Shown here: positions 2 through 39,289 of the stretch, in pieces
Layout of the letters: every line of letters starts with the position of its first letter
Position numbering within the stretch: position 1 is the first letter of the stretch
Virus record (IMG/VR): IMGVR_UViG_3300042558_004400
Coordinates: 1-64,000 of that record
DNA: 64,000 nucleotides
Strand: one strand, 5' to 3'
DNA from: a virus
The notes under the pieces: generated by a model
Database searches by the model: none
Seen by the model: only the letters and a program-made list of their open reading frames with translations
Told to the model about the DNA's origin: nothing
Position numbers and translations under genes: made by a program

Positions 2-772
2 TCTACAGCGCAGGCTACAACGCAGGCACAGACTCTACCGCAGGCCTTTACTCCTCTTGGTATTCGTAACGGAGATTCTCGACTTCAAGAGTATCCAGAC
101 CCTAAGGACGATGAACCTTATCTTGTTATTGGTGAAGTAGATTCTGCTGGATCTGAATGCCCATCATGTCAAGCTGAAGTTCTTGCTTATGTCCCTAAGA
201 GTTTTTATTGCGACACTTGCGATTTATGCTTTGCCCTTATGTCAGACTCTTATGGTGAGATAATTGACAACGCTAAAAAGTATTTAACTGACAGAAAATT
301 TGATTCTAATATAACTTATTATCTTTGGACTAAAGATGCTCAAGATCAAGATTTGCTTATGCGAATTAAAGAAGTAGATTATAACGATGATGATAGCTCA
401 TTGCATACATCATTGCTGACTACTAATTCTGGTCCAACTTTAGAAGTTCTTGATGGTTACTTCTATGAAGGATTTGACGAAACAAGAACAGTTTGTTGTG
501 ATGTTCATTTGTACACAGTTGAAAAATGCACTTGTGAAAAAACTGTCTATTACGATGATGTAATTGAATTCGATCAAAGTCATCCATACAATGTGTATGA
601 TAATAAAGCTGCTTGTGTTGATTGCGAATTTTATTATTCTCGCAACTGCAAACCTTATTTAAATTCAATTGTTAATTTTGCAAAAAACAAACAAAAGATT
701 GAAACCCCTATTGGTGAATGTAAAGATTTTACTCTTTATGAACTCAGCAATACTATGTCTAGTTACGATTAA
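2..772 (+). CDS. Cys-rich protein, 5' end outside window
   Basis: The reading frame is open from base 2, so the ATG at 239 is probably internal and the true start lies before the window. The visible part has about 256 residues. A CPSC...CDTC pair near visible residues 57-76 looks like a zinc ribbon. Further cysteines follow (CC at about 165, CTC at about 175, and CVDC towards the C terminus). The middle is acidic and polar. The gene sits 10 bases upstream of the E1-like gene and is probably cotranscribed with it, so it may belong to the same cassette. I see no JAB (H-x-H) or E2 signature, and I do not recognise the family. Confidence 0.75.
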   Translation, partial: STAQATTQAQTLPQAFTPLGIRNGDSRLQEYPDPKDDEPYLVIGEVDSAGSECPSCQAEVLAYVPKSFYCDTCDLCFALMSDSYGEIIDNAKKYLTDRKFDSNITYYLWTKDAQDQDLLMRIKEVDYNDDDSSLHTSLLTTNSGPTLEVLDGYFYEGFDETRTVCCDVHLYTVEKCTCEKTVYYDDVIEFDQSHPYNVYDNKAACVDCEFYYSRNCKPYLNSIVNFAKNKQKIETPIGECKDFTLYELSNTMSSYD

Positions 773-782
773 GGAATAATTT

Positions 783-1532
783 ATGGAACCTAAAAGAGTA
801 GTTTTAGTTGGTGCCGGTGGCATTGGCACCTGGTTAGCAGAAGGAGTTGTTAGACTTCTTGAATGGAAATATCCTGGATCTGCTTTGATAATCGTTGATG
901 GTGACAGCTATGAGCAAAGAAACTTAGAGCGTCAATCATTCACTCAAGTCGGCAACAAAGCTTCAGTTAAAGCTCTTGAGCTGACTAAGCAATTTAATCA
1001 GACTCTTGTTATACCTATTCCTAAATGGGTTGTTTCTGATGAACATCCTGAAACAGATGAAGAGTCTAGCAAGATTAGAGCAACTAAGTTGCTCGCTGAA
1101 GGCGATATCGTTCTTGCTGTTGTTGATAACTTTTCTGCTCGTAAAATTTTATTTGACGCAGCTTCAAAACTTAACAACGTAGATGTTTTTACTGGTGGAA
1201 ACGATGATAACCTTTTTGGTAGCATCTATCATTATCGTCGTCGTGATGGCGTAGACGTTACTGCTCATCCAGTAGAAACACACCCAGAATACCAAAATCC
1301 ACCTGATCGCAATCCAGGTGAAATGTCTTGTCAAGAACGAGCCGAAGTAGAAGGTGGCACCCAAATACTTGCCACCAATATGGCTGTTGCTGCAATGATT
1401 CTTGGTCGTATTCAATATACTATTGTTTCCGAACAAAATCCAGAACAGTCAGAGATCTACTTTGATCTAGGTCTTGGCATGTCCCAACCATATAATCGTA
1501 TGGTCAATCAACAGCAACCCGCTTACCTATAA
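783..1532 (+). CDS. ThiF/E1-like adenylyltransferase (PRTRC-ThiF type)
   Basis: This 249-residue protein has the E1/ThiF Rossmann fold. The nucleotide loop GAGGIG is at residues 10-15, the acidic strand end VDGD at 38-41, NLERQ at 47-51 and VVDN at 113-116. Family members adenylate the C-terminal glycine of a ubiquitin-like protein. Cys183 in EMSCQERAE is the best candidate for the thioester cysteine, because PRTRC ThiF proteins carry a cysteine in a similar late position followed by an Ala-rich helix. The start has AAGGA 9 bases upstream. The ubiquitin-like gene follows 21 bases later, which supports an E1 role over thiamin or molybdopterin synthesis; no such pathway genes are nearby. Confidence 0.85.
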   Translation: MEPKRVVLVGAGGIGTWLAEGVVRLLEWKYPGSALIIVDGDSYEQRNLERQSFTQVGNKASVKALELTKQFNQTLVIPIPKWVVSDEHPETDEESSKIRATKLLAEGDIVLAVVDNFSARKILFDAASKLNNVDVFTGGNDDNLFGSIYHYRRRDGVDVTAHPVETHPEYQNPPDRNPGEMSCQERAEVEGGTQILATNMAVAAMILGRIQYTIVSEQNPEQSEIYFDLGLGMSQPYNRMVNQQQPAYL

Positions 1533-1553
1533 TTAATAAACGGAGATAATAAC

Positions 1554-1805
1554 ATGGAAATGAATTCCAACCAAACAAACACCAGCACAGGCGAAGGCGT
1601 AGCCAACGTTCGTTACGGTGTATACAACCAACCAGCACCAGTCTCAGGAAAGACTGTTGGACAGGTCCGTGAGCAGTTCAGCAAGCTCTGGGGCATTAGC
1701 TCAGATGCTATTGCTTACAAGGGCAAAGACAAGCTTGACGAGAACTATGTCATTCAGTCAAACGACAACGTTGAGTTCCATCGCCGTGCAGGCGAAAAGG
1801 GCTAA
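1554..1805 (+). CDS. Ubiquitin-like beta-grasp protein (PRTRC protein C-like)
   Basis: The 83-residue protein has a polar N-terminal tail of about 18 residues. A compact domain follows with alternating beta and helix pattern (VRYGVYN, then TVGQVREQFSKLWG, then IQSNDNVEFHRR) and ends in RRAGEKG. PRTRC protein C family members, as I recall them, end in a very similar FRRAxGTKG, and a C-terminal glycine is what an E1 activates. The gene follows the E1-like gene and is preceded by a strong CGGAGAT ribosome site. Codons are much richer in C than in the neighbours, and a 13-bp terminator follows, which suggests high separate expression. Conjugation itself is inferred. Confidence 0.75.
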   Translation: MEMNSNQTNTSTGEGVANVRYGVYNQPAPVSGKTVGQVREQFSKLWGISSDAIAYKGKDKLDENYVIQSNDNVEFHRRAGEKG

Positions 1806-1824
1806 CACCTTTCCTAACATGATC

Positions 1825-1896
1825 GTGGGGGGGACTATTAAACTACTTGATAGTTTATTAGACTCTTAACAGAGTAGTCCCCCCCACTATTTTTTA
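1825..1896 (+). terminator. Rho-independent terminator after the ubiquitin-like gene
   Basis: A perfect 13-bp inverted repeat pairs 1825-1837 (seven Gs then ACTA) with 1875-1887. Its loop contains a second small AAACT/AGTTT hairpin, and a T-rich tract follows at 1890-1895. It would insulate the ubiquitin-like gene from the ATPase downstream. Confidence 0.85.
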
Positions 1897-1935
1897 TAAA
1901 GCCATTAGATTATTATTTTGATACCTGGAGTACAT

Positions 1936-3534
1936 ATGCTCTTTCAGCAAATCCAATTGGGAATTCCCGCTATTTGGATTAAAACAACCGACCCTTACAG
2001 ACTCGAAGAAAATATTACATCCTTTGATAAGCGTACATACTTTACAATTTCAAAAGATGGATTTTCTCAAAACATAAACTTCCAATGGAAACCAGTTCTT
2101 GTTTCTATACCTGCTCCTGAAGACGGTGCTCCACCAATAATCAAGACAACTACTGATTTGTCATTGTCTTTTGACTACATGCTTAATTCTTCTGCTGTTA
2201 AAGATCTTCCTAAATCTTTTATTTACAATTTAATTGGAGATCCTAAAGCATTTGCTAATGAATTTTCAGGCTTAGTCTCTTCCCTGCATTCTGATTACAG
2301 AAAATCTTTTAAATCTGATGACATTTCTTTAATGCCACTTCAGCTCATAGTCTTGAGCGCTTCTGATGTTCCAGAAGAAATTGCGCATTTATTTTATGTT
2401 CATGAAGATATGTACCCCACTCTTCAAGAGCTAAACGAAATTCTCAACCACATACATACTTCTACTAATGGCGAAGTATTAGATGCTGCTAAAGCCAAAG
2501 AAATTTCCAATGCTGGACTTGGTCTTACAGAATCTAAATTTATCAATCTCTGTCTTATGTCAGTACTTGAACATGGAACAATTAGTTCTTCTTACATCTA
2601 TGAAGCTAAAATGGCTAATGTTAAGAAAAACGGAATCCTTGAAATAATAAAACCTAAGATTACTTTTGATCAAATTGGTGGCCTTGATAATATTAAAGAT
2701 GTTATTATGCGCAATCTTTACTTCTGGAATAATCCTGAAGAAGCTGAGAAGTTTGGCATTCAGCCTATTCGTCGCATGCTAACTGTTGGCATTCCCGGCA
2801 CTGGTAAGTCTGCTATATGTGAGGCAACTGCTAGTGCTCTTGGTCTTGACCTTGCCCGAACTGGTGTAAGTCAAGTCATGAATTCTTTTATCGGTCAATC
2901 AGAACAAAACATGCGTACAGTCTTTCAGCAAATTAAAGTCATGGCTCCGCTTTGCGTATGGATTGACGAGTTTGGTCGAGATATGTCTGGTGGTCAAAGC
3001 TCGTCTCAAGTAGACGGTGGCACTACCGATCGTGTTCATGGTGAATTTCTTACTGGACTTCAAGAACTTCCTAACGATGTTTTCTTAATGTGTGCTGCTA
3101 ACCAGCTAAACCATCTTAAACCAGAAATGCTTCGTGCAGAACGCTTCGATAAGATCTTCTTTGTTGGCTTGCCATCATTTGAAGAACGAATTGAAATTAT
3201 TAAGATCTATCTTCCTGAAGACACTTATGATTACTCTGCTATAGCTCAAGCAACCAAGTACTTTACTGGTGCAGAAATTAAATCATTAGTTAAAGAAACA
3301 AAATTCAATGTTGTTTCTGCTGAACACCGCATGCTCAATACTGCTGATGTAGTAAAAGCTGCTCCATTTATGCGTAATATTCTTTGGAATAAAGAACGCG
3401 AAATGATTAGAGACTTATATCGTTATGCTTATGACAACTGGGACTGGGCTTCTAGCTTCCAGTATAATGACATAGATGATATACTTGGTAAACAAAAATC
3501 TTCTCAAGCCCCTTCTTGGGACTTGAAAGTCTAA
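1936..3534 (+). CDS. AAA+ ATPase, Ycf46/CDC48-like
   Basis: I chose the ATG at 1936, with GGAG 8 bases upstream, over the TTG at 1918. The product is 532 residues. The N-terminal 200 residues resemble the non-catalytic part of Ycf46-type proteins, beginning with a hydrophobic strand and a DPYRLEE segment. The AAA module has Walker A GIPGTGKS (about 285-292), Walker B CVWIDEFGRD (about 340-349), sensor 1 CAAN (about 386) and RAERFDKIFF near 400, where the arginine finger lies. Such ATPases remodel or unfold proteins. Its place between the ubiquitin-like and E2-like genes makes it the natural unfoldase of the cassette; this role is inferred. Confidence 0.85.
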   Translation: MLFQQIQLGIPAIWIKTTDPYRLEENITSFDKRTYFTISKDGFSQNINFQWKPVLVSIPAPEDGAPPIIKTTTDLSLSFDYMLNSSAVKDLPKSFIYNLIGDPKAFANEFSGLVSSLHSDYRKSFKSDDISLMPLQLIVLSASDVPEEIAHLFYVHEDMYPTLQELNEILNHIHTSTNGEVLDAAKAKEISNAGLGLTESKFINLCLMSVLEHGTISSSYIYEAKMANVKKNGILEIIKPKITFDQIGGLDNIKDVIMRNLYFWNNPEEAEKFGIQPIRRMLTVGIPGTGKSAICEATASALGLDLARTGVSQVMNSFIGQSEQNMRTVFQQIKVMAPLCVWIDEFGRDMSGGQSSSQVDGGTTDRVHGEFLTGLQELPNDVFLMCAANQLNHLKPEMLRAERFDKIFFVGLPSFEERIEIIKIYLPEDTYDYSAIAQATKYFTGAEIKSLVKETKFNVVSAEHRMLNTADVVKAAPFMRNILWNKEREMIRDLYRYAYDNWDWASSFQYNDIDDILGKQKSSQAPSWDLKV

Positions 3535-3556
3535 CAATCTTAAACAAAAGGTAATT

Positions 3557-4174
3557 ATGTCAATTGAAGAAAATGTAGAAGAGTTCTTAGAATCACTAGA
3601 TTCTGATAACCAAGATGATAAACCAAAATACACTAATACACTTTATAAGAAATGGTTTAAATCTAAATCCCAAAGTGGTTTTATTTCCATTCGACCTTGG
3701 TTTCAGGGTATGAAATTTTCCATTGACATTGGTAAGACCAATGCTTCTGGAAAGCTTGAAAGTAATACTAACTGTTTTGTTGATGCTATTGACTTTGCAG
3801 CTTACCTTAAAGCTATAACCAATGGAACTGCTGCTCTTAACTTTCCTGCTAATGAAAGACTTGGCCTTGCTACACCTGAAGCATATGTTTCTTATGGTGG
3901 AACTATGACTGCTGCTGGTCAATCAATCAGTAGAATCTTTAAATGTCAGTATTGGCAGTCTGGAGACAACGTAGATACTAATGCGTTCATCTGGAAAGCT
4001 GGTCATTTTAAAGCTCGCAAGTCTGACAGTGGTGCATTTATTCCTGATATGAAATCACCTCTGTCTGTTGACTCTATTAAAGTAAGTCGTCAAGATATCG
4101 TAAGCATTTCTTATTTGCTTGATCTTTCTTTAGCTTCCCATGTCACTAACAACACAGAATGGTACGACGCATAA
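3557..4174 (+). CDS. Hypothetical protein in ubiquitin-like cassette
   Basis: The product has 205 residues and I do not recognise it. The first 30 residues are acidic with a predicted helix. The rest looks like a folded beta-rich domain (SGFISIRPWFQGMKFSIDIG, then a Gly/Ala-rich centre and IVSISYLLDLSLASHV). There is no signal peptide or membrane span. AAAAGG lies 8 bases upstream of the ATG. The stop overlaps the next start (TAATG), so it is translated with its neighbour, which points to a shared function. Confidence 0.75.
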   Translation: MSIEENVEEFLESLDSDNQDDKPKYTNTLYKKWFKSKSQSGFISIRPWFQGMKFSIDIGKTNASGKLESNTNCFVDAIDFAAYLKAITNGTAALNFPANERLGLATPEAYVSYGGTMTAAGQSISRIFKCQYWQSGDNVDTNAFIWKAGHFKARKSDSGAFIPDMKSPLSVDSIKVSRQDIVSISYLLDLSLASHVTNNTEWYDA

Positions 4175-4563
4175 TGTCAGATGATTCATTATTCGAAGGC
4201 ATAAGCGATATAGACCTTCTCAGAGAACAAACTCAGCAACTTATTATATCTATGTCTAATAAAATAGACGAAAGATTTAAAGAGTTTGATGAGTCTATTG
4301 AGAATCTAGAGAAGCAGATTGCTACTTTAATTCTTGGTTTTGGCGAGCAAGCAGTAAACATGGAAGGCCTTATAGCCCAAATTAAATTTGCTACTCCTGA
4401 ATCCCAAAAAATATTTATGGACACTATAGCTCACAGCAGAAAACAAATGCTTGAAGCCATGAAAGAAGGAGCCGGTGGTCTATTGGCTGCAGAAAGTCCA
4501 GGAGTTGCCTCAGCCATTGAGAGCCTGGCTGACGAAAAGTTATTTGACGGAACCGATCAATAA
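4174..4563 (+). CDS. Coiled-coil hypothetical protein
   Basis: I use the ATG at 4174, which overlaps the upstream TAA, over the in-frame ATG at 4159. The 129-residue product is almost wholly helical. A heptad-rich segment at about 5-50 (LREQTQQLIISMSNKIDERF) is followed by a second amphipathic region and a Gly/Ala-rich tail ending FDGTDQ. It may be an oligomerising partner of the adjacent ATPase. No family is recognised. Confidence 0.65.
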   Translation: MSDDSLFEGISDIDLLREQTQQLIISMSNKIDERFKEFDESIENLEKQIATLILGFGEQAVNMEGLIAQIKFATPESQKIFMDTIAHSRKQMLEAMKEGAGGLLAAESPGVASAIESLADEKLFDGTDQ

Positions 4564-4753
4564 CGTTTCTGTTCTATTTGTAGAATCTGAAAATTTTAAT
4601 ATATTAAATAATTTCTATTTTTTACATAAAATATATCCAATTGCAAAACAAGTGCATGACGAAATACATTCGTTGCATTTGTCATCTTTGCCATTTCTTG
4701 ATTCATTACAAAATAAAACATTGTCCTTTGAATCTATACTTACGGAGACTTAA
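4544..4753 (+). CDS. Small hypothetical protein with uncertain start
   Basis: The frame is open from an ATG at 4475, but that start would overlap the previous gene by 89 bases. A TTG at 4544 gives 69 residues. No clear ribosome site is seen for either. The body (NVSVLFVESENF onwards) is a mixed alpha/beta stretch without known motifs. It could instead be the C-terminal end of the preceding gene: removing one A from the AAAA at 4535-4538 joins the two frames. Its stop overlaps the next ATG. Confidence 0.4.
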   Translation: MTEPINNVSVLFVESENFNILNNFYFLHKIYPIAKQVHDEIHSLHLSSLPFLDSLQNKTLSFESILTET

Positions 4754-5397
4754 TGCTACCTATATATCAAATACCTACAACTGGATTCACCAATGAGCAT
4801 TTAGATGATATTCTTGATTCTATTGATGATCATCTTTATCCAGTTAATACTTTTATAGCTTATCATCTTTTAAATAAGAATTATTCTTATCTTAAAACTT
4901 TACCTAAAAGTTCTGAGATAACTGTAGAACGGTATGCTCAACTAACTTCAGAGCTAACTCTAAGTCAAACAGTTGTTGCACGCGCTTTTGCTGATGATAT
5001 TTTTAATACATCTCACACAACTTATGCTTTCATCGGATCTAAAAAACTTTTTAAAACAATAGCTTTTGATTCCTTTCTACCAAGTGACTATGAGAATATC
5101 ATATCTCAATTAACTGCAAACAATTATCTTAAGATATCTGGTCAAGGATCTGGATCTGTTGTTCTTCTTAATACACACAAGTTAGATCAACCTTTTACCG
5201 TACACAGTTTTAGTAATTCTGATAATTTTCAATCTTCTATATCTTCTTTTATCGATTCTTTTAATTTAACTAAAATTGATAATCAATACCTTTTAAATCT
5301 TTTATCTGAAAAAGATATATATATAAATTCTCTTCTTGAGCAAATTCAAAACCTTAAGACTGAGAACTATCAAGTTTCTCAAATGACTTGGAGATAA
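4753..5397 (+). CDS. Hypothetical protein in ubiquitin-like cassette
   Basis: The product has 214 residues, starts at an ATG overlapping the upstream stop, and follows an ACGGAG ribosome site. It is soluble and helix-rich, with an aspartate-rich start (DDILDSIDDH) and a C-terminal leucine-rich helix that may form a coiled coil (INSLLEQIQNLKTE). No catalytic motif is seen. It lies in the run of genes between the AAA+ ATPase and the E2-like pair. Confidence 0.7.
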   Translation: MLPIYQIPTTGFTNEHLDDILDSIDDHLYPVNTFIAYHLLNKNYSYLKTLPKSSEITVERYAQLTSELTLSQTVVARAFADDIFNTSHTTYAFIGSKKLFKTIAFDSFLPSDYENIISQLTANNYLKISGQGSGSVVLLNTHKLDQPFTVHSFSNSDNFQSSISSFIDSFNLTKIDNQYLLNLLSEKDIYINSLLEQIQNLKTENYQVSQMTWR

Positions 5398-5403
5398 TTA
5401 ATA

Positions 5404-5985
5404 ATGTCAACATCAACAATAAGAAATCTTTTGGATTCTATAACGGATCCTAAAAGTGATGATTATGAACTTGCCAAAGAGATTTCTAAAAATACTTTAA
5501 CATCTTGTCAGCATCACAGTTCTCCTTCTAATCTTAATGCATCTTCTTCTTATGCTTACGCTAATAATCCCGGCATATATTCTTGTTCAGCTCCTACTCG
5601 CAAGTCTAACGATGGCCAACCTATCTCTTGTGTCTATGCAATGGAACAGTCTAATTGCCCGTTGTATAAGCCAGACTTTTCTGTTATGAATAAGGTAAGA
5701 GCTAATAATGACATTGATTATTATCTTTCAAGATTTCGTTCTTATGACGGAACATATCTTTATAGAATTTATGATAATAACTTAAATGTTTATTCTCAAT
5801 TTAAATACACTCAAATAGAAATGGAAAACGACAACTTAAATTTAGAAGCAATTTCTTTATTTAATAAGTTTTTAATTGATTTGTCTATACAGTTTGTTCA
5901 ACAAGATGTAGCTGAAGATGCTATGTTGATCCCCAAACAAAAAGAAACAAATTCTTATTTGAAGACTTTAGTTTCTAAGGAGTAA
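5404..5985 (+). CDS. Hypothetical protein with N-terminal cysteines
   Basis: The product has 193 residues. Cysteines and histidines cluster in the first half (CQHH near residue 34, then single cysteines near 58, 75 and 84), which could bind metal. The second half is helical and acidic. It starts 6 bases after the previous stop and ends 4 bases before the first E2-like gene, so it is part of the same operon. No family is recognised. Confidence 0.7.
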   Translation: MSTSTIRNLLDSITDPKSDDYELAKEISKNTLTSCQHHSSPSNLNASSSYAYANNPGIYSCSAPTRKSNDGQPISCVYAMEQSNCPLYKPDFSVMNKVRANNDIDYYLSRFRSYDGTYLYRIYDNNLNVYSQFKYTQIEMENDNLNLEAISLFNKFLIDLSIQFVQQDVAEDAMLIPKQKETNSYLKTLVSKE

Positions 5986-5989
5986 TATT

Positions 5990-7129
5990 ATGGATCCTGA
6001 ATATTATGACTATAATTATTCTTTGTATACCCCACAGAATATATTTAATCTTACCCATCAAGCAACTCCCAGAGTTGTTGACAATGATCTTTGGATTAAT
6101 TACCAGGTTAGTTTTTTAGATACTAATAAAGTAATAGAAGATCGTTCTAAATCTGCTTTTACTAGAGATTATTCCCTATTGCCTTTGGCCGTTAGGTATT
6201 CATCTCCTGACGGCAAGACTCATATTATAGAGCGCCCTCCTTTTGAGATAGAAATAGACTTTTCTACTGCAACTTCTTATCGCCCTAGGACTACTCCTAA
6301 ATATTTACAATCAGTTAAGATGTGGATTCCATGGACCGTTTCAGTTATATCTACTGAGTATCAATCAGGTTCTTTTAGTAGTTCTTTTGTTTTTCATTTA
6401 TACTTTAACGATGGTCCCCTTCAATCTTTTGATGATAAGTTAGTTCCTTGCTATCTTCCTAATTCTAGTTCTGGCAATATTTGTATGGGACAAGATTCTT
6501 TACCAACTAGCCAGATGATTGAAAATGGTTCTTCTATAACTGATATTTATAATCATACTTTTAATTCTTATTTTGGTGGATGGAATTGCGATCTTTCTTG
6601 TGCTATGCAAAACCTAGAATATTTTGCTCCTATAGTTGAAAAAATATCACAAAATAAAAAGAGTGCTGCTATTATTTCTAACTATTACAAAAGACATAAC
6701 ACTGCAAAGTATTACAAGAGTCTTTTGTATCTTTTGTCTAATATTTCTTTACAAGAGCACATTGGCTACATCACTTACACTAAAGAAAAAACTTCTTACC
6801 ATCCAACACTAAGACATCATTTTAATAAATCTAATTTAGATTCTTTTATTTTAATATCTCAATCTCACCAAAATGCAACTGCTCCCTGGCATAGAATAGC
6901 AAGAATCTTGACTCATAACTATGGACAATATCCTTCAGTTGTAAACGAAACAAGTTTTAAAGTGGTTATAAAAAATTATCAAAGTTCTCTTATTCTTGAT
7001 TATATTTCTAACCCTTATATTGTTGCTTCAATATACAAGGCTATGTTGAATTTTGACCCTGACAATTTACAAAACGAGTTTGATCATTCTGAGATCGCTC
7101 CTTATATTAAACAATCGGAGAATATTTAA
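5990..7129 (+). CDS. E2-like protein, first paralogue (PRTRC-B/Prok-E2 type)
   Basis: The protein has 379 residues. Three landmarks align with the next gene at nearly constant spacing: ERPP at 81-84, WIPW at 112-115 and the cysteine of SSGNICMG at 165. Prokaryotic E2-like proteins of PRTRC-type loci show a similar sequence, with a proline-rich stretch, then an N-x-x-x-x-G-x-x-C motif and a following Trp/Phe-rich segment (here FNSYFGGWN at about 188). The family match is from memory. If correct, Cys165 would carry the ubiquitin-like protein as a thioester. The C-terminal 170 residues are helical and unassigned. Ribosome site AAGGAG precedes the ATG. Confidence 0.55.
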   Translation: MDPEYYDYNYSLYTPQNIFNLTHQATPRVVDNDLWINYQVSFLDTNKVIEDRSKSAFTRDYSLLPLAVRYSSPDGKTHIIERPPFEIEIDFSTATSYRPRTTPKYLQSVKMWIPWTVSVISTEYQSGSFSSSFVFHLYFNDGPLQSFDDKLVPCYLPNSSSGNICMGQDSLPTSQMIENGSSITDIYNHTFNSYFGGWNCDLSCAMQNLEYFAPIVEKISQNKKSAAIISNYYKRHNTAKYYKSLLYLLSNISLQEHIGYITYTKEKTSYHPTLRHHFNKSNLDSFILISQSHQNATAPWHRIARILTHNYGQYPSVVNETSFKVVIKNYQSSLILDYISNPYIVASIYKAMLNFDPDNLQNEFDHSEIAPYIKQSENI

Positions 7130-7132
7130 ATC

Positions 7133-8374
7133 ATGTTAACACCTGCCGATTTTATATATAATGAACAATCTTCTTCGGAGTATATTGAATTCAACTATAG
7201 TCCTTTAGCTCTTGCTGGTCGTTATTCTTCTTATTCTGTCTCTGATTATTTCTTAAAGATATCTGATCAGTCTTCTACTGTTTCTCGGGAAATGAAAATT
7301 CAAAATCTTGAGTCTTTTCAAAGCTTTAATATAACTGTTGCAGAAAATGCAATGAAAGAACTTAAATCTGCTATTTCTCATCGTTCTTTTTCTGAAGATG
7401 AATCTCTTTTATTCCCAGGAGTTAGACATTTGTCACCTGGAATTATACTATTTGAACGTCCTCCGTGTCATAAAGTGGTATCAACTTACAATGATTACAG
7501 AGATCAAATAAGTAGTCAAACTGGTACATCGGAATACTACCTGCCTATTCCCTGGCAAGTCTATATTGCTATGTACAATCCAGAAGACATGAGATTAGTT
7601 TCTGTTAAGATGTTTTTTACATCTAACTCTTTAGCTTCATTGGACCAACCTATTTACTCTCCTCCTTTGTACAACTTTTATTCTAATGGCACTTTGTGCA
7701 GACCTTTCTTTAGTAACATGGAAGACATTGAGAAATACCCTAAAGATCTTTCTGGGGTAATTGCTTCTGCTTACGACTGGATCTGGAACAGTGGTTTTAA
7801 TTTCGATATTACTGAAAGTATATCTTTCTTTTTGCATTGTAAAAAGTATGAACAGTTTGAAAAATATTTAAATCCTCAAACTATGCCTAATATGAATTGG
7901 TTGCGAGATCATAATTTATATAGTCTTCCTTCTAACTTGCCTTCTCAATGGCACAGTCCTTTCTTCAAATGCTGGGAACAAGTTCCTCTTTCTGAAATTT
8001 CTAAATTATCTTGGAATACTTTCACTGAAACTGAGTTCTATTACCAGCATATAAACAACCTCAGAGATAACTTAATTCATGAATTTTGTGATTCTCATGA
8101 TTATGTTATTCACGAAACTGATTCTGATGAGGATGATTGCCACAGTGATTATTGCTCCGACAATTGTGTTCATCTTCACGAATTTTCTGAACTAGAAGCT
8201 TATCAAAAATTTATTGCTAAGCGCTTCTTATCTGAAAACCGTACTTTAACTCAAGCTTTAGATGATTCTGTTAAATTCTTGAATTCTCATAGAATCAATA
8301 TTAAACCATCTTCTTACATTCAGTGTAGACAGATGTTCTCTAATATTATTCAGAATTCTGTTCTTCCGTCTTGA
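7133..8374 (+). CDS. E2-like protein, second paralogue
   Basis: The protein has 413 residues and is a diverged duplicate of the preceding gene: FERPP at 107-111, PIPW at 138-141, then PPLYNFYSNGTLC with the cysteine at 189 and IWNSGFN after it. The segment before the cysteine is closer to the PRTRC-B consensus than that of the first copy. A later acidic, Cys/His-rich patch (about residues 320-345, CHSDYCSDNC) is absent from the first copy and may bind metal. The gene begins 3 bases after its paralogue and ends the operon; a promoter overlaps its stop codon. Confidence 0.55.
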   Translation: MLTPADFIYNEQSSSEYIEFNYSPLALAGRYSSYSVSDYFLKISDQSSTVSREMKIQNLESFQSFNITVAENAMKELKSAISHRSFSEDESLLFPGVRHLSPGIILFERPPCHKVVSTYNDYRDQISSQTGTSEYYLPIPWQVYIAMYNPEDMRLVSVKMFFTSNSLASLDQPIYSPPLYNFYSNGTLCRPFFSNMEDIEKYPKDLSGVIASAYDWIWNSGFNFDITESISFFLHCKKYEQFEKYLNPQTMPNMNWLRDHNLYSLPSNLPSQWHSPFFKCWEQVPLSEISKLSWNTFTETEFYYQHINNLRDNLIHEFCDSHDYVIHETDSDEDDCHSDYCSDNCVHLHEFSELEAYQKFIAKRFLSENRTLTQALDDSVKFLNSHRINIKPSSYIQCRQMFSNIIQNSVLPS

Positions 8375-8399
8375 CTTTTATATACCTTTTTGTTATTAT
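8371..8399 (+). promoter_or_regulatory. Sigma70-type promoter
   Basis: TTGACT at 8371-8376 and TATTAT at 8394-8399 are separated by 17 bases. It overlaps the stop codon of the second E2-like gene and points to the HTH gene at 8430. A TATAAT at 8401 is an alternative -10 but is too far from the -35. Confidence 0.6.
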
Positions 8400-8429
8400 A
8401 TATAATCTAAGCTTGAAAAGGTAATACGA

Positions 8430-8744
8430 ATGACCAAAAACAAATCATCTCAGCCTTCTTTTAACAGATCTGAAGTAGCTAAAATTCTCAATGTTTCTAC
8501 ATTGACTATCGCTAATCGAGAAAAAAATAATAAGTACCCTAACCCTAGAAGAGATTTAAATAATTACAGAATTTATACTATAAATGATGTTTTAAATCTT
8601 CAACTTATAACATATAATCATGTTGATCCAAAACCTGTTATATCTGTTTTGTACGACAAAGGTTATAAGGATACTAAATATCTTGGCCAAATAATTGACG
8701 AAGCTTTATCGAATAGGGTGAATACAAATGTCAACAGAAGATAA
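8430..8744 (+). CDS. MerR-like HTH DNA-binding protein
   Basis: The product has 104 residues. A winged-helix start (FNRSEVAKILNVSTLTIANR at about 11-30) is followed by an arginine-containing wing and YTINDVLNLQ, the usual layout of MerR/excisionase-type domains. The remainder is short and helical, with no effector domain. It follows a good promoter and heads a unit that includes SSB, so it may regulate early transcription. AAAAGG ribosome site 7 bases upstream. Confidence 0.7.
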   Translation: MTKNKSSQPSFNRSEVAKILNVSTLTIANREKNNKYPNPRRDLNNYRIYTINDVLNLQLITYNHVDPKPVISVLYDKGYKDTKYLGQIIDEALSNRVNTNVNRR

Positions 8745-8970
8745 TCAAAAAGAACAGGAGTATGCTGAAGGATTTAAACTTCTTGAAGACATTCCTGAAG
8801 GCACTACCACAGATGTGGTTACAGATCTCAAGATGGGTATATATAATTTATACCTTAATCTTTTGAACTACCTTATGGTAGAATATGGTTCAGCAGAAGC
8901 AGTTAGAATTTCTACTGAATTTTTAGATCAAATATCTAATACATTTAAAGATACATTAAACAAAGAATAA
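8728..8970 (+). CDS. Small acidic helical protein
   Basis: An 80-residue product that overlaps the HTH gene by 17 bases. It is acidic at the N terminus, then shows amphipathic helices (IYNLYLNLLNYLMVEYG). No family is recognised. Its position directly before the SSB gene suggests a replication or recombination accessory role, which is only inferred. Confidence 0.65.
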   Translation: MSTEDNQKEQEYAEGFKLLEDIPEGTTTDVVTDLKMGIYNLYLNLLNYLMVEYGSAEAVRISTEFLDQISNTFKDTLNKE

Positions 8971-8985
8971 TTGGAGACAATAGAA

Positions 8986-9420
8986 ATGATAGATCCACGT
9001 AACAACGTAATATTAACAGCAGGCATCGTGTCTGATCCAGAAGTGATTGCTAATGGCAACATTGCTAAATTCAGAATTGCAGTTGACTTTGCAGGCAGCG
9101 AAAAAGGTGCAGGCGTAACTTCAGGATACTTTGATGTTACCTATTACCTTAAAGATGGAACAGACTTTGCTACTAAGAATGCTTCGTTTGTTTCTAAGCA
9201 AATCAGCGAAGGCAAAATGAAAAAGGGTTCACAAGTTCAGCTTGTTGGACGCTTGGTTCAAGAGCGTTGGCAGCAAGAAGGATCAGCTCGTTCGAAGATT
9301 GTTATTGTTGCAGAAGCCCTAACTTATGTTGGCTCTTCCTTCCAGAAGTCCGACACAGCAGCAACTAACGATCAGACTAAGCAAGCTGGATCAGCTAACT
9401 CTGTTCCGGATGAGTTCTAA
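8986..9420 (+). CDS. ssb: Single-stranded DNA-binding protein
   Basis: I use ATG 8986, since GGAG at 8973-8976 is its ribosome site; the in-frame TTG at 8971 lies before that site. The 144-residue product has the SSB OB-fold pattern (VILTAGIVSDPE near the start, then AKFRIAVDF, SGYFDVTYYLKDG, KGSQVQLVGRLVQERW). A Gln/Ser/Ala linker follows, and the acidic tip ends PDEF, like the DDxPF tail that recruits partner proteins. Codons are richer in C and G than in the neighbours, consistent with high expression. Confidence 0.9.
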   Translation: MIDPRNNVILTAGIVSDPEVIANGNIAKFRIAVDFAGSEKGAGVTSGYFDVTYYLKDGTDFATKNASFVSKQISEGKMKKGSQVQLVGRLVQERWQQEGSARSKIVIVAEALTYVGSSFQKSDTAATNDQTKQAGSANSVPDEF

Positions 9421-10168
9421 TTCATTTGACGCTTCCTTAGTAGAAGAAATTATAAACGAAGCTTTATCTGAATCTCCATCAGTTGAGAGATCTTATGGTC
9501 AACTCGGCTTTATGGAGACAGATATAGTTTCTAATATATTCTCAGCAATTGATAAGAAGTTGCCAAATGCAGATGTTGCTAACATCATTAAAGAGGCAAG
9601 AGTTTCTTCTAATTCTTTAAAAACTTCTTTAAAGATTACAGACCTGCATACAGTTACTCACAATTGTAGGAAGTGTCAATTTTCTTCTAGTCCAGTTTTA
9701 CCTAAATGGAATGTTAATAACCCTGACGTTTTATTTATATTTGAGACTTCCTATTTAGATCAAGCTTCTTCTGATTTCTTCATATCTTCTTTGAAAGAAG
9801 TAGGATTCTCTTCAGAAAAAGCCTGTGTAACATATCTACTGAGATGTCCTACCAGGGATGTAGATCAAAAATATATAGACAACTGTTTGCCATATCTTCA
9901 TAACGAAATTCATATTATGAATCCTAAGATTATATGTCCAATAGGAAACACTGTTCTATCTAATCTTTTTGGCACAGACCTTAAAATAAAAGACTACAAA
10001 CAAAAATTAAACTGGCTAGGTAGTTGGCCAATATATCCACTCTATTCTTTAAACTATGTTTTAAAATCTGGAGAACCTGCTCAAGCTTCCTTCAAGGAAG
10101 ATATCTTACAAGTGTACCAATTTATATATAAGAAAGGCAATAAAAATGGAGCTCACATACCTGAATGA
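9410..10168 (+). CDS. Uracil-DNA glycosylase superfamily protein
   Basis: The ATG at 9410 overlaps the SSB gene, giving 252 residues. The C-terminal two thirds resemble the Fe-S family 4/5 glycosylases: CRKC in the start, PDVLFIFE strand, ACVTYLLRCPTR, CLPYLHNEI and PKIICPIGNTVLSNLFG. The four cysteines fit the iron-sulfur ligand pattern. The usual GEAPG catalytic loop is replaced by FETSYLD and no motif near the end matches the DNA-intercalation loop, so it may bind DNA or act differently. The N-terminal 80 residues are an extra helical region. Cotranslation with SSB suggests a role in replication or repair. Confidence 0.65.
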   Translation: MSSNSFDASLVEEIINEALSESPSVERSYGQLGFMETDIVSNIFSAIDKKLPNADVANIIKEARVSSNSLKTSLKITDLHTVTHNCRKCQFSSSPVLPKWNVNNPDVLFIFETSYLDQASSDFFISSLKEVGFSSEKACVTYLLRCPTRDVDQKYIDNCLPYLHNEIHIMNPKIICPIGNTVLSNLFGTDLKIKDYKQKLNWLGSWPIYPLYSLNYVLKSGEPAQASFKEDILQVYQFIYKKGNKNGAHIPE

Positions 10169-10973: not shown

Positions 10974-11045
10974 GCCTCTGTAGTTAAATGGATATAACAT
11001 GGGACTTCTAATCCCCCGTTCTAGGTTCGATTCCTAGTGGAGGCG
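10974..11045 (+). tRNA. tRNA-Arg (UCU)
   Basis: A full cloverleaf can be folded: acceptor GCCTCTG with TGGAGGC, D stem GTTA/TAAC, anticodon loop CTTCTAA with TCT at 11007-11009, and T arm CTAGG TTCGATT CCTAG. CCA is not encoded. The anticodon stem has one mismatch at its outer pair. The tRNA reads AGA, a codon heavily used in this AT-rich genome. Confidence 0.9.
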
Positions 11046-11118
11046 CAAAGGGTAGCTATTGCTCAGGTCCATCGAAATACTAGAATAATAGCTGCTCTTT
11101 ATAATCGAAAGTAAAAAT

Positions 11119-11568: not shown

Positions 11569-12180
11569 ATGACTACAATAATTGGAGTTCAAGGTGATGG
11601 TTTCAGTATTATTTGTACAGATTCCAGAATATCTTCTATGGACGATGGTGGTTTCGCCTCTCAAATAACAACTTTAGGAAAAAACTCTTCTAAGGTAGCA
11701 GTTAATGGTAGATACCTTTTAGGTGCTGCTGGAGATGTTAGAGCTATAAATATCCTGCATCACGTCTTTCAGCCACCTGTACCACCACCAGGCACAACAG
11801 ATTCTAAGTTGGACCAGTTCTTTACTAGTAAGTTTATACCATCTTTAAGAGCTACATTTGAAGTTCAAGGTTATGCTGCTCCTGAAAGAGATGAGTCAAG
11901 CCACATAGCTGAGCAGGGCTCTACTGTCATCTGTTCCATTAATGGCTCCATCTATGTTGTGGATGGAGACTACTCTTGGACATCTGACGTCAGTGGCCTC
12001 TACGCGCTCGGTACAGGCGCTTCCTACGCTCTAGGTGCTATGTCTATCCTCTTTCCTAAAAAGGGCATTCCTAACATCGCTCAGGCTAAAACTTTCTGCC
12101 TTAAAGCTATTGCGGTTTCTGCAAAATTTGACCCCTATACTGGTCCCCCTTACTATTGTTATGTACAGGAAGAGTCATAG
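11569..12180 (+). CDS. Proteasome beta/HslV-like Ntn hydrolase
   Basis: The 203-residue protein begins MTTIIGV. Removing Met, as expected before Thr, exposes Thr1-Thr2 without any propeptide, as in HslV. Counting from Thr1, CTDSR places Asp17 and Arg19 exactly as in proteasome beta subunits. The lysine of NSSKVAV (about position 41) fits Lys33 if an eight-residue insertion is allowed. GAAGD and GTGASYALGAM in the second half fit the conserved glycine-rich strands. It would form a threonine peptidase, possibly a ring. Codons are richer in C in its second half than in the neighbours. The partner ATPase at 1936 is a candidate, by inference. Confidence 0.75.
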   Translation: MTTIIGVQGDGFSIICTDSRISSMDDGGFASQITTLGKNSSKVAVNGRYLLGAAGDVRAINILHHVFQPPVPPPGTTDSKLDQFFTSKFIPSLRATFEVQGYAAPERDESSHIAEQGSTVICSINGSIYVVDGDYSWTSDVSGLYALGTGASYALGAMSILFPKKGIPNIAQAKTFCLKAIAVSAKFDPYTGPPYYCYVQEES

Positions 12181-14541: not shown

Positions 14542-15039
14542 ATGACAAAACCTACAATGAGTAACTCTGAATACCTTGAATTATGCAAAGAGCAAAAAAT
14601 TAATCATCCCGATGTAATGGGATTTTATTTTCCTAAACCAATTCCTAATTTTGAACCACCTATGATTACCGATAGTGGCACTTTAAGAGAACCATCATTT
14701 CCTATGGTATCAAAGTGTTGTTGGGACTGTGCATACTTGTATTATTTTGAAAGAACAATAGAAGAAGTAAAAGAAATTTATGGCTATGGCAATAATAAAA
14801 AAGATAGAAGCTATTATCTTAATGGAGAACTCATAGAAAGAATTCTTACTTCAGAACAGATTGAAGCTAAGAATCTTGCAGATGAATTGCATATTCAAAA
14901 AAATTTAGGATATTACTTTTGTACTTTTCCCAAAGAAGATCTTAATTCAGGAATTTTGATTATTGAAAATGAAGAAAACATTGAAAAATTTGATTATGAA
15001 TGGGCTTGTGACATTTGTGAAATGAGTGGTTGTTACTAA
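14542..15039 (+). CDS. Hypothetical Cys-containing protein
   Basis: 165 residues with AAAGGAGATG upstream. KCCWDCAY near residue 57 and CDICEMSGC at the C terminus suggest one metal site made from both ends, with a helical insert between. It is the last gene of the leading plus-strand block; 173 bases of AT-rich DNA without a clear hairpin separate it from the converging genes. Confidence 0.65.
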   Translation: MTKPTMSNSEYLELCKEQKINHPDVMGFYFPKPIPNFEPPMITDSGTLREPSFPMVSKCCWDCAYLYYFERTIEEVKEIYGYGNNKKDRSYYLNGELIERILTSEQIEAKNLADELHIQKNLGYYFCTFPKEDLNSGILIIENEENIEKFDYEWACDICEMSGCY

Positions 15040-18190: not shown

Positions 18191-18266
<76 letters not shown>

Positions 18267-37303: not shown

Positions 37304-37591
37304 TTATTTTTTCTTCTTGGGACCCTTAGTAAGAGTAGAAACATTTTTGGGAGGTTGTCCTTTAACACCTTTTTCTGGTGTTCCAGACTTTCTCTTTCTA
37401 GTAACTGCACTTTTCTTTTGAGCAGGCGACATAGCCCCTGCTTTAGCAGCTGGCACACATTTAGCATAGCCTGACCCACCAGCACCTGATGTGCCACATG
37501 GTTGATACTTGCCTCCTTTTTTGGGAGCACCAATATTGACCCATTTTTGATCAAACCATTTAGTTAATCCAACACCTTTAGGGCCAGCCAT
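37304..37591 (-). CDS. Small basic protein (DUF5872-like)
   Basis: 95 residues. KWFDQKWVNIGAPKKGG, then PCG...GYAKCVPAAKAGAMSP and a Lys/Arg-rich tail match a family of small viral basic proteins, as I recall it, of unknown function. Two cysteines may bind metal. Last gene of the run of small basic proteins. Confidence 0.65.
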   Translation of the reverse strand: MAGPKGVGLTKWFDQKWVNIGAPKKGGKYQPCGTSGAGGSGYAKCVPAAKAGAMSPAQKKSAVTRKRKSGTPEKGVKGQPPKNVSTLTKGPKKKK

Positions 37592-37592
37592 C

Positions 37593-37706
37593 TTACTTTT
37601 TCTTTCTTAAATTTTTCTTATATTCGTCTTTATATAAAGAGCCTTTATTTTTTAAATCTTTTTCTATTTCTTTTTTTCTTTCAGAAGATTTTTTTTGTGC
37701 GGTCAT
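37593..37706 (-). CDS. Tiny Lys/Glu-rich protein
   Basis: 37 residues, mainly Lys and Glu, starting MTAQKKSSERKK. It ends one base before the next gene. Low complexity, but the tight packing supports it. Confidence 0.4.
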   Translation of the reverse strand: MTAQKKSSERKKEIEKDLKNKGSLYKDEYKKNLRKKK

Positions 37707-37709
37707 AAA

Positions 37710-37889
37710 TTATTTCTTCTTTGCTGCTTTTTTGGTCGAGACAGTCTTCCATGTTCCACCCATAGACTTATACTTTTTTGCAGCCCATGCATTAGCATAG
37801 GCTGAAGGGTACACGTCAAACTTAGATTTAGCTTGTGATTTTGCCGAAGACCATAAAGCTGCCTTTGTTGGTTTATTTACTTTAGCCAT
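37710..37889 (-). CDS. Small basic protein
   Basis: 59 residues (MAKVNKPTKAALWSSAKS, then YANAWAAKKYKSMGGTW and a Lys/Ala tail). The WAAKKYKSMGGTW core appears in other small viral basic proteins. Probably nucleic-acid-binding. Confidence 0.55.
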   Translation of the reverse strand: MAKVNKPTKAALWSSAKSQAKSKFDVYPSAYANAWAAKKYKSMGGTWKTVSTKKAAKKK

Positions 37890-37890
37890 G

Positions 37891-38157
37891 TTATTTACAA
37901 TCCCATTTTCTTAATGCCAATGTTTTACGAGTTGGTTTACCATTAGGTTTTTTTGCAGGGCCTGGCATGCCGCTCATCCTTGCACAGAACGACTTACGTC
38001 GTGCTGCTGCCTTAGGACTAGAGGCTGCTTGCTTTGCTGACACTGGTGGCTTAAGGTTTCCACCTGTGGCCTTATTGTAAGATGCTCGCCCCTTTGCATT
38101 CAATCCACCCTTAGGATTCTTTCCTGCTTTAGTTTGCCACGTTGGAGACTTAGCCAT
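37891..38157 (-). CDS. Small basic protein (DUF6321-like)
   Basis: ATG 38157 gives 88 residues: WQTKAGKNPKGGLNAKGR, SYNKATGGNLKPPVS, then KSFCARMSGMPGP and TRKTLALRKWDC. This pattern is shared by small proteins of large phages and giant viruses. The two cysteines and many Lys/Arg suggest DNA binding or packaging with the genome. Confidence 0.65.
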   Translation of the reverse strand: MAKSPTWQTKAGKNPKGGLNAKGRASYNKATGGNLKPPVSAKQAASSPKAAARRKSFCARMSGMPGPAKKPNGKPTRKTLALRKWDCK

Positions 38158-38170
38158 GTTAAACCAAGTA

Positions 38171-38323
38171 CTATTTTTTCTTTGCTGCTTTTTTAGCTGC
38201 AATAGCTTTTTGGATAAAAGGAGGAAGCTGCTTTTGTGCTGCAGTCATGCCACCTGTTTTAGCAGCTGGCTTAGCAGCTGGCTTGGTCATCATTTTTTTT
38301 GCGGAAGCTTTTTTCATTGCCAT
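38171..38323 (-). CDS. Small Lys/Ala-rich protein
   Basis: 50 residues with AKPAA repeats and a TAAQKQLPPFIQKAIAAKKA end, resembling linker-histone-like tails. Too short for a firm family. Confidence 0.45.
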   Translation of the reverse strand: MAMKKASAKKMMTKPAAKPAAKTGGMTAAQKQLPPFIQKAIAAKKAAKKK

Positions 38324-38332
38324 AATATTATC

Positions 38333-38503
38333 CTACTTTTTCTTTTTGTTTGTTGTTTTAATTTTTGAGCTGAACGTCTTAGCATCTGATGCCTCACGCC
38401 CATACTTCTTTACCTTTGGAGCAACCTTTGATCCATCGATTTCATCTTTTAAAACTTTGTTAGCATTATTGTATACAGATGATTTTGGTTTCTTTGCAGC
38501 CAT
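38333..38503 (-). CDS. Small basic protein
   Basis: 56 residues starting MAAKKPKSSVYNNANK. Acidic and basic residues alternate, with a Lys-rich end. The same MAAKK start occurs in several genes of this run. Confidence 0.45.
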   Translation of the reverse strand: MAAKKPKSSVYNNANKVLKDEIDGSKVAPKVKKYGREASDAKTFSSKIKTTNKKKK

Positions 38504-38504
38504 T

Positions 38505-38711
38505 TTATTTTCCTTTATTTATTTTTCTAAGTGTCTTAGCAAGGTTTGCTTGCTTGACAGTTCTTGGACTATATTTGCTTGGGTTCTTGGTAACAGCTGC
38601 TGCCATTCCTGCAACTGATTTTCCAGCTTTTTTAGCTTTAGCAGTAAAAGCGCCGGGTCTCTTAATCGCTCCAGCTATCCAGTTTTTGTCTGAACTTTTT
38701 TTAGCTGCCAT
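38505..38711 (-). CDS. Small basic protein (KNWIAGAIKRPGAF type)
   Basis: 68 residues. KNWIAGAIKRPGAFTAKAKK and SKYSPRTVKQANLAKTLRKI are motifs of small basic proteins common in viral and plasmid genomes, function unknown, sometimes thought to coat DNA. Confidence 0.6.
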   Translation of the reverse strand: MAAKKSSDKNWIAGAIKRPGAFTAKAKKAGKSVAGMAAAVTKNPSKYSPRTVKQANLAKTLRKINKGK

Positions 38712-38794
38712 GAATAGTCCTTTAATAAGTTAATGGGAGTGATACATATATAGTACCACCCCCATTATCAAATGTCATCTCAAAAAGAGAGTTA

Positions 38795-39025
38795 TCAGCC
38801 GATAACTTTTCCTTTAGAGTCCTTGATTGGACGCTTAGCCATCTTCATTTGGCCAGTACTTACTGATGGCTTAGGAGCCGAAGTACCTTTTTTCTCGATG
38901 TTCTTGCCTTTAGTGTCTTTAATTGGACGAACGCCCTGCTTTGCCTGACCGGTGCTTACGCTTGGATCTGGAGCAGAAAGGTTTCCGCCTTTTGACATTT
39001 TACCTGTGGCTTTTTTTGCTGCCAT
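38795..39025 (-). CDS. Small protein with two internal repeats
   Basis: 76 residues with a duplicated unit: SAPDPSVSTGQAKQGVRPIK and SAPKPSVSTGQMKMAKRPIK, each followed by D-x-KGK. A tandem duplication within the gene. Basic, no known fold. Confidence 0.5.
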   Translation of the reverse strand: MAAKKATGKMSKGGNLSAPDPSVSTGQAKQGVRPIKDTKGKNIEKKGTSAPKPSVSTGQMKMAKRPIKDSKGKVIG

Positions 39026-39055
39026 TTTATTTTCTCCTTGATTTAATACTAGTAT

Positions 39056-39289
39056 TTATTTTCCACGATGAGATTTAAGATGTACATCAATCTTATCGTC
39101 GACCTTATCAACTTGTTCATCTAAGTGATCAAGTTTATGATGCAAATGTATGATATCATCCTTTACATTTACAAGCAAGTTAGCCACCACATTGTGGTCA
39201 TCCTTGTTTTCTTTTCTGCCTCTTTGCACCAAGGAAGCTAGGATAGCACCTAAGGCAGCGATTAAGGCAACAGTTATAGTTGGTTCCAT
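39056..39289 (-). CDS. Single-span membrane protein with coiled coil
   Basis: 77 residues. Hydrophobic helix at about 5-21 (ITVALIAALGAILASLV), then a charged heptad region (HKLDHLDEQVDKVDDKID). The arrangement resembles holin or Rz-like accessories. Confidence 0.55.
   Translation of the reverse strand: MEPTITVALIAALGAILASLVQRGRKENKDDHNVVANLLVNVKDDIIHLHHKLDHLDEQVDKVDDKIDVHLKSHRGK

What the first reader, a model, noticed from the sequence alone, without database searches (positions are those of the whole stretch)
783..8374. Phage-encoded ubiquitin-like conjugation cassette
An E1/ThiF-like gene, a ubiquitin-like gene ending RRAGEKG, a Ycf46-like AAA+ ATPase and two E2-like genes sit in one cluster in a phage. 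The organisation resembles the bacterial PRTRC systems but adds an ATPase and lacks a visible JAB peptidase. Its targets and function in infection are unknown.
Basis: partly seen in the sequence, partly recalled or inferred. Interest (0 to 1): 0.9.

Follow-up and report, generated by a model that had tools for sequence, protein, structure and literature searches.

The report
Phage ubiquitin-like tagging operon with unfoldase
A family of very large freshwater phages carries its own ubiquitin-like protein-tagging kit (activating enzyme, tag, several conjugating enzymes, a tag-removing peptidase and an unfolding motor), so the virus probably tags and remodels proteins in the cell it infects, something hardly studied in phages.

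Summary
Window 783-8374 encodes an E1/ThiF enzyme, a ubiquitin-like protein, a Ycf46-type AAA+ ATPase and two E2-like proteins, on a ~103 kb fragment of a tailed phage whose relatives assemble to ~202-216 kb. The 'missing' JAB peptidase is present: it is the gene directly upstream, and the contig (and window) begins 293 bases after its HSHP motif. Full copies in relatives carry an invariant JAMM motif and pass Pfam's Prok-JAB cut-off. Upstream of it, relatives carry a third E2-like domain fused to a zinc-finger-like array. The cassette, in constant order, was found in about 40 viral contigs, with catalytic residues conserved and catalytic cores under strong purifying selection. Profile comparison links E1, JAB and both E2s to the PRTRC proteins of plasmids. 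The Ubl model matches ubiquitin in the PDB. The E2 assignment rests on sequence only; the predicted E2b fold gave no significant PDB match. Strict PRTRC membership fails (no ParB; scores far below curated cut-offs). Best reading: a phage Ubl conjugation/deconjugation system coupled to an unfoldase. An HslV/proteasome-like peptidase lies 3 kb downstream in most relatives, not all, so a degradation branch is possible, not shown.

The parts
2..772 (+). 3' part of a JAB/JAMM peptidase gene (complete ~550 aa in relatives); the window holds only the zinc-ribbon-like C-terminal half
   Evidence: Twin contig L063: gene 8338-9990, HSHP at 8926, window begins at 9219. Prok-JAB 27.7 bits vs cut-off 25; PRTRC_A E=6e-4 to 3e-3; E143/H197/H199/S207/D210 invariant
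783..1532 (+). E1-like adenylating enzyme (ThiF), candidate catalytic Cys183
   Evidence: Pfam ThiF 6e-13, PRTRC_ThiF 1.1e-10, hhalign to PRTRC ThiF E=1.5e-20 over 225 columns with the cysteine aligned
1554..1805 (+). Ubiquitin-like modifier, C-terminal ...EFHRRAGEKG
   Evidence: AF2 pLDDT 79, beta-beta-alpha-beta-beta-beta order; Foldseek top hits ubiquitin variants E=1e-4, prob 1.0; GxKG tail in all relatives, four with two extra residues
1936..3534 (+). Ycf46-like AAA+ ATPase (open frame from TTG 1918)
   Evidence: AAA 1e-22, phrog_8638 3e-67, hhalign 4e-60 over 482 columns to phage AAA proteins of which one sits beside DUF1257/DUF2997; Walker A/B and aromatic pore loop in all 42
3557..4174 (+). 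Conserved cassette protein, 205 aa, unknown fold
   Evidence: 59-98% identical in relatives, dN/dS 0.03; no family match
4159..4563 (+). Conserved cassette protein, 134 aa
   Evidence: Synteny in all loci that reach it
4475..4753 (+). Small conserved gene, 92 aa, overlapping the previous gene
   Evidence: tblastn in 41 loci; AAGGAG before GTG start
4753..5397 (+). Conserved cassette protein, 214 aa
5404..5985 (+). Conserved cassette protein, 193 aa, with an invariant cysteine pattern (possible metal-binding)
   Evidence: Alignment; no family match
5990..7129 (+). E2-like protein A, candidate catalytic Cys165 in PNSSSGNICMG
   Evidence: hhalign to PRTRC_B E=1.9e-4; phage HMM picks out PRTRC_B/Prok-E2_D proteins among 1231 plasmid and gut-phage frames; P-N...C or N...C in all relatives
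7133..8374 (+). E2-like protein B, candidate catalytic Cys189 in NFYSNGTLCRPF
   Evidence: hhalign to PRTRC_B E=1.2e-5, to E2A 2.4e-14; Prok-E2_D E=0.037; no significant PDB fold match
8430..8744 (+). MerR-like regulator, next gene downstream, nearly always present next to the cassette
   Evidence: Pfam MerR 5e-4; synteny
11569..12180 (+). HslV/proteasome-beta-like Ntn peptidase; possible partner, not proven part of the system
   Evidence: phrog_1040 (peptidase HslV family) 1.3e-18; Thr1, Asp17, Lys conserved; present in 28 of 38 records, absent from some long ones

Best explanation
The cassette is a phage-encoded ubiquitin-like conjugation and deconjugation system coupled to an AAA+ unfoldase. 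The E1 adenylates the C-terminal Gly of the small modifier (tail AGEKG) and carries it as a thioester on Cys183. The modifier passes to the cysteine of one of up to three E2-like proteins, whose fast-evolving flanks and zinc-finger-like arrays choose the targets. It is then joined to lysines on target proteins. The JAB peptidase trims the modifier precursor where the tail is longer and removes it from targets. The Ycf46-like AAA+ ring pulls tagged proteins apart, remodelling complexes or, where the HslV-like peptidase is present, possibly feeding it. Targets are probably host proteins blocked or dismantled during takeover, though phage proteins are possible. Shown here: gene content, order, conservation, homology, motifs and purifying selection. 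Inferred: every chemical step, the target choice and the role in infection.
For: E1, JAB, E2A and E2B each match only their PRTRC counterpart in an all-against-all profile comparison (E 1.5e-20, 2.6e-5, 1.9e-4, 1.2e-5 against off-diagonal values of about 0.04-0.9). JAMM residues, the E1 Cys, the Ubl GxKG motif and the E2 Cys are conserved across the relatives. The Ubl model matches ubiquitin. A divergent E2 copy in L101 passes Pfam Prok-E2_D's cut-off (35.7 vs 25 bits). Constant gene order in about 40 contigs. Catalytic cores have dN/dS of about 0.03-0.08 (E2A core 0.22) against 0.21-0.73 in most E2 flanks and zinc-rich tails. The AAA+ pore loop is conserved.
Against: No experiment. The E2 fold was not found by Foldseek against the PDB (model pLDDT 70). 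The downstream histidine reported for type-6d E2s is not kept; an invariant W-N-x-G-x-N-x-D stretch stands near its place in E2B. The Ubl to PRTRC_C sequence link is weak (E 0.026). No E3 is identified.
Confidence: 0.7

Rival explanations
1. A sulfur-carrier system: the E1 and Ubl make a thiocarboxylate (as ThiS/MoaD do) for modifying tRNA, DNA or a metabolite, and JAB releases the carrier; no protein conjugation.
For: ThiF-type E1 hits include MoeB/ThiF models; JAB occurs in some sulfur-carrier operons (PMC1779556).
Against: No rhodanese, sulfurtransferase or cofactor enzyme among the cassette proteins; two to three E2-like proteins with an invariant cysteine; E1 and JAB closest to PRTRC, not to ThiS operons.
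Confidence: 0.1
2. An anti-phage or superinfection-exclusion device carried by the phage, working like Bil or CBASS Cap2/Cap3 by tagging parts of competing phages or defence sensors.
For: E1 has weak local matches to PADLOC E1-E2 models (best 2.8e-6); a related bacterial conjugation system acts in anti-phage defence (PMC10097602).
Against: The cassette is a fixed core feature of one phage lineage rather than a patchy accessory; E2s, Ubl and JAB do not match PADLOC models.
Confidence: 0.15
3. A genome maintenance or replication module, as the ParB link suggests for PRTRC plasmids: reversible tagging regulates phage replication or segregation proteins, not host takeover.
For: Neighbouring genes are SSB and UDG in every relative examined; PRTRC sits with ParB on plasmids.
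Against: No PRTRC ParB in six records searched.
Confidence: 0.2

Closest known systems
PRTRC cassette (ThiF, protein A/JAB, protein B/E2, protein C/Ub, with ParB), equal in content to operon type 6d of Iyer et al. 2006 (PMC1779556)
   Same: E1 as a separate protein, separate JAB, small Ubl with C-terminal Gly (PRTRC tails such as AGAKG and RRAVGTKG), E2 of family D with an N-x(n)-C motif
   Different: No ParB; JAB more than twice as long, with a zinc-like C-terminal half; two to three E2s instead of one; AAA+ ATPase added; downstream His of the E2 not kept; gene order JAB-E1-Ubl-AAA-...-E2-E2; E1 forms its own clade
Ycf46-like AAA+ / DUF1257 / DUF2997 module of other phages (e.g. Rhizobium phage RHph_I4; DUF2997 also in Agrobacterium phage JP1)
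   Same: The AAA+ is homologous along 482 columns, N-terminal half included
   Different: DUF1257 and DUF2997 not found in the cassette; here the AAA+ sits with a full E1-E2-Ubl-JAB set
JAB + ThiF + E2_D genes in Bacillus phage vB_BauM_KLEB27-3 (217 kb); PRTRC_A + ThiF annotated in Acinetobacter phage ME3
   Same: PRTRC-like parts in large phages; KLEB27-3 gp196 is E2_D-like (21.1 bits, cut-off 25) with a candidate active-site cysteine
   Different: No AAA+ or HslV annotated in the short stretch examined; E1 only 26-29% identical
Bil, Bub and CBASS Cap2/Cap3 bacterial conjugation systems
   Same: Bacterial E1/E2/JAB logic
   Different: Known as bacterial defence or candidate immune operons; only weak local E1 matches here
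HslUV / 20S proteasome
   Same: Downstream gene is an HslV/proteasome-beta-like Ntn hydrolase with conserved Thr1 and Asp17
   Different: AAA+ lacks an HbYX tail; peptidase absent in some long records and present in other phages in which the E1 search found nothing

Membership tests
PRTRC | ThiF of the PRTRC type | tested here: inconclusive
   TIGR03736 best NCBIfam hit, 41 bits vs cut-off 145; hhalign 1.5e-20; separate clade in tree
PRTRC | JAB peptidase (protein A) | tested here: inconclusive
   JAMM complete and Prok-JAB above cut-off; TIGR03735 17-19 bits vs 102
PRTRC | E2 family D (protein B) | tested here: inconclusive
   Profile link 1e-5 to 2e-4, HMM selects PRTRC_B among 1231 frames; window copies below curated cut-off, one L101 copy above the Prok-E2_D cut-off
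PRTRC | Ub-like protein C | tested here: inconclusive
   Similar tail pattern GxKG; hhalign only E=0.026
PRTRC | ParB-related protein | tested here: not met
   TIGR03734 not found in six records incl. four of 202-210 kb
Ubiquitin-like beta-grasp protein | beta-grasp fold with C-terminal Gly | tested here: met
   Predicted structure and PDB comparison, invariant GEKG
E2 (UBC) enzyme | catalytic Cys in N-x(n)-C loop | tested here: met
   All relatives of E2A and E2B in which the gene is complete
E2 (UBC) enzyme | UBC fold | tested here: inconclusive
   AF2 model of E2B has strands, then Cys loop, then helices, but no significant PDB match
Ycf46/DUF1257/DUF2997 module | DUF1257 and DUF2997 next to the AAA+ | tested here: not met
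   No Pfam match in cassette proteins; present beside the homologous AAA+ in RHph_I4
Proteasome/HslUV | AAA+ docks on a proteasome core through a C-terminal HbYX tail | tested here: not met
   C-termini vary and lack HbYX
Ubl conjugation system | covalent Ubl-protein conjugates | not testable with these tools
   Needs biochemistry or mass spectrometry

The most novel reading that the evidence does not exclude
A complete viral counterpart of the ubiquitin-proteasome route: E1, up to three E2s (one with a zinc-finger-like array that may serve as E3), a Ubl, a JAB deconjugase, an AAA+ unfoldase and an HslV-like peptidase together tag, unfold and degrade host proteins during phage infection.
Probability: 0.22. 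Interest if true: 0.92.

Novelty: new variant of a known kind. Interest (0 to 1): 0.74.

Why it matters
Bacterial relatives of ubiquitination are known mainly as defences against phages. Here the phages own a full set, kept intact by selection and joined to an unfoldase. That makes 'do phages use ubiquitin-like tagging as a weapon or a regulator?' directly testable, and adds a new combination (E1-E2-Ubl-JAB with a Ycf46-type AAA+) that also hints at what the poorly understood Ycf46/DUF1257/DUF2997 modules do. No report of such a full phage set was found in the papers searched; that library is incomplete.

Tried and rejected
JAB missing: rejected. The 205-aa gene as a homologue of the gene after the AAA+ in Rhizobium/Rhodobacter phages: no similarity. 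Window genes as direct Pfam E2_D/Prok_Ub members: below cut-offs. HslV as an obligate part: rejected, absent from 10 of 38 records incl. long ones of 193, 194, 180 and 159 kb, and present in phages without a detected cassette. A UBC fold by Foldseek: no significant PDB match; the viral library gave uncharacterised phage proteins. Host from bacterial genomes: only one binned contig, in an Ectothiorhodospiraceae MAG, which I take as likely viral; the host stays unknown. Zinc arrays as RING: only weak matches (IBR 0.02, RING 0.03) in one relative. Rfam found only tRNAs. Alignment used a placeholder and is not used. Two key papers on Bub systems were not held.
Full report
What was claimed.

Genes present. 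All named genes are there on the + strand at the stated coordinates. ThiF matches Pfam ThiF at 6e-13 and, best in NCBIfam, PRTRC_ThiF at 1.1e-10. The AAA+ matches Pfam AAA at 1e-22 and phrog_8638 at 3e-67. The E2-like genes give only hints on their own (PRTRC_B 0.11; Prok-E2_D 0.037). The Ubl matches no convincing family.

The genome. The window is the first 64,000 bases of a 102,799-base virus record. It has tailed-phage genes: baseplate proteins, a DnaE-type polymerase, a DnaB-like helicase, ribonucleotide reductase and thymidylate synthase. Several relatives with the cassette are contigs of 202-216 kb, so the full phage is probably about 200 kb or more; completeness was not tested.

The JAB peptidase. 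The open frame that runs into the window from its first bases is the end of a ~550-aa protein in relatives. Complete copies contain 'HGTESIV...VGSVHSHPxMxAYASGTDHxDQADFDG', i.e. the JAMM pattern E...HxHx7SxxD, and Prok-JAB scores 27.7 bits (cut-off 25). In the twin contig, identical to the window over its first 11,318 bases, the window begins 293 bases downstream of the HSHP codons. The peptidase is cut off by the contig end, not lacking.

A third E2-like protein. Directly upstream of JAB, many relatives encode a 518-658 aa protein whose N-terminal half resembles E2B (E about 1e-12 to 4e-19) and holds an invariant cysteine in 'LPNxNC...VGWxCLY'; its C-terminal half has invariant CxxC pairs, suggesting zinc binding. 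It lies outside the window.

Breadth. One scan found 16 loci and a profile scan 43 (about 40 distinct contigs). In nearly all complete loci the order is JAB, E1, Ubl, AAA+, 205-aa, 134-aa, 92-aa, 214-aa, 193-aa, E2A, E2B, MerR. JAMM, E1, AAA+ and Ubl motifs are kept in all but truncated copies; four Ubls carry two residues after GEKG, as some PRTRC_C proteins carry residues after their Gly, which suggests trimming. E2A keeps P-N-x(n)-C in nearly all distinct copies and N-x(n)-C in all, e.g. 'LPNIFADGRICLG', close to the eukaryotic UBC signature as I know it; E2B keeps N-x(n)-L-C with small variations. The deepest relative, L101 (52% E1 identity), has three E2-like genes at the E2A/E2B position.

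Homology tests. Profile-profile comparison against PRTRC proteins fetched from environmental plasmids gave matches on the diagonal only: ThiF 1.5e-20, JAB-A 2.6e-5, E2B-B 1.2e-5, E2A-B 1.9e-4; Ubl-C is weak at 0.026; other pairs, including unrelated cassette proteins, stay at about 0.04-0.9. The E1 cysteine (SCQER) lies at the PRTRC SCS cysteine and HSHP at the PRTRC HSH. Phage E2 HMMs pick out PRTRC_B/Prok-E2_D proteins among 1,231 plasmid and gut-phage frames, and an L101 E2 passes Prok-E2_D's cut-off.

Structures. The Ubl model (pLDDT 79) has beta-grasp order and its top PDB matches are ubiquitin variants, NEDD8 and a bacterial ubiquitin. The E2B model (pLDDT 70) shows strands, a cysteine loop and helices, but nothing significant in the PDB; so the UBC fold is not shown.

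The AAA+ link. The AAA+ is homologous along 482 columns to AAA+ proteins of other phages, among them one beside DUF1257 and DUF2997. It has Walker motifs and an aromatic pore loop, as protein unfoldases do, but no proteasome-docking HbYX tail.

Selection. Between the window's twin and L064, dN/dS is 0.03-0.05 for E1, AAA+, the 205-aa protein, the JAB domain and the E2B core, and 0.08 for the third E2's core, but 0.73 for the E2B N-terminal part, 0.41 for the E2A C-terminal part and 0.25-0.26 for zinc-rich tails; the E2A core is intermediate at 0.22. Enzyme cores are mostly constrained while the outer parts vary, which fits target-recognition surfaces; this last step is inference.

A possible degradation branch. 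Gene 11569-12180 is an HslV-family Ntn peptidase (phrog_1040, 1.3e-18) with Thr1 and Asp17 conserved. It is in 28 of 38 records, about 11 kb after E1 where the position was checked, but missing from several long records, and it occurs in phages without a detected cassette.

Comparison with known systems. Content equals operon type 6d of Iyer et al. 2006 (PMC1779556), the PRTRC core. It fails PRTRC membership: no ParB, scores far below curated cut-offs, an E2 without the downstream histidine, and an E1 in its own clade. PRTRC-like parts also occur in cultured large phages: Bacillus phage KLEB27-3 has JAB, ThiF and an E2_D-like protein side by side, and Acinetobacter phage ME3 has PRTRC_A and ThiF annotated. 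So the class is not unheard of in phages; the extended cassette is the new variant.

Verdict. Real and conserved. Works like: Ubl conjugation with deconjugation and unfolding, about 0.7. Full tag-unfold-degrade route with HslV: about 0.2. Host-directed role: plausible, unshown.

Noticed in passing
window 11569-12180: HslV/proteasome-beta-like Ntn peptidase; best isolate relative (45% identity) is in Actinomycetia phage DSL-LC01 from a lake.
   Followed up: partly
L071 and L094: Both lie on one 267,766-base IMG/VR contig that carries two different copies of the cassette and two HslV genes; a joined assembly of two phages or a true second copy.
   Followed up: no
L024 8386-11708 (Rhizobium phage RHph_I4): Phage module AAA+ / unknown / DUF1257 / DUF2997, whose AAA+ is homologous to the window's; a similar layout is visible in JP1, RcTiptonus, HJ05 and SM1.
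   Followed up: partly
L124 1672-4720 (Bacillus phage KLEB27-3): Cultured phage with E2_D-like, JAB and ThiF genes in a row; a practical experimental model.
   Followed up: partly
L021 7-1682 and 6445-7140: Human gut phage contig with JAB, ThiF and Prok-E2_D genes.
   Followed up: partly
window 14542-15039: 165-aa ORF with a 'CCWDCAYLYYFE' stretch that resembles the CVDCEFYYSRNC motif of the JAB C-terminal region.
   Followed up: no
window 10974-11046 and 18191-18266: tRNA-Arg (tct) and tRNA-Gly (tcc).
   Followed up: no
window 37304-39289: Cluster of small lysine- and proline-rich proteins on the - strand with repeat-like motifs (e.g. 'RPIKD').
   Followed up: no
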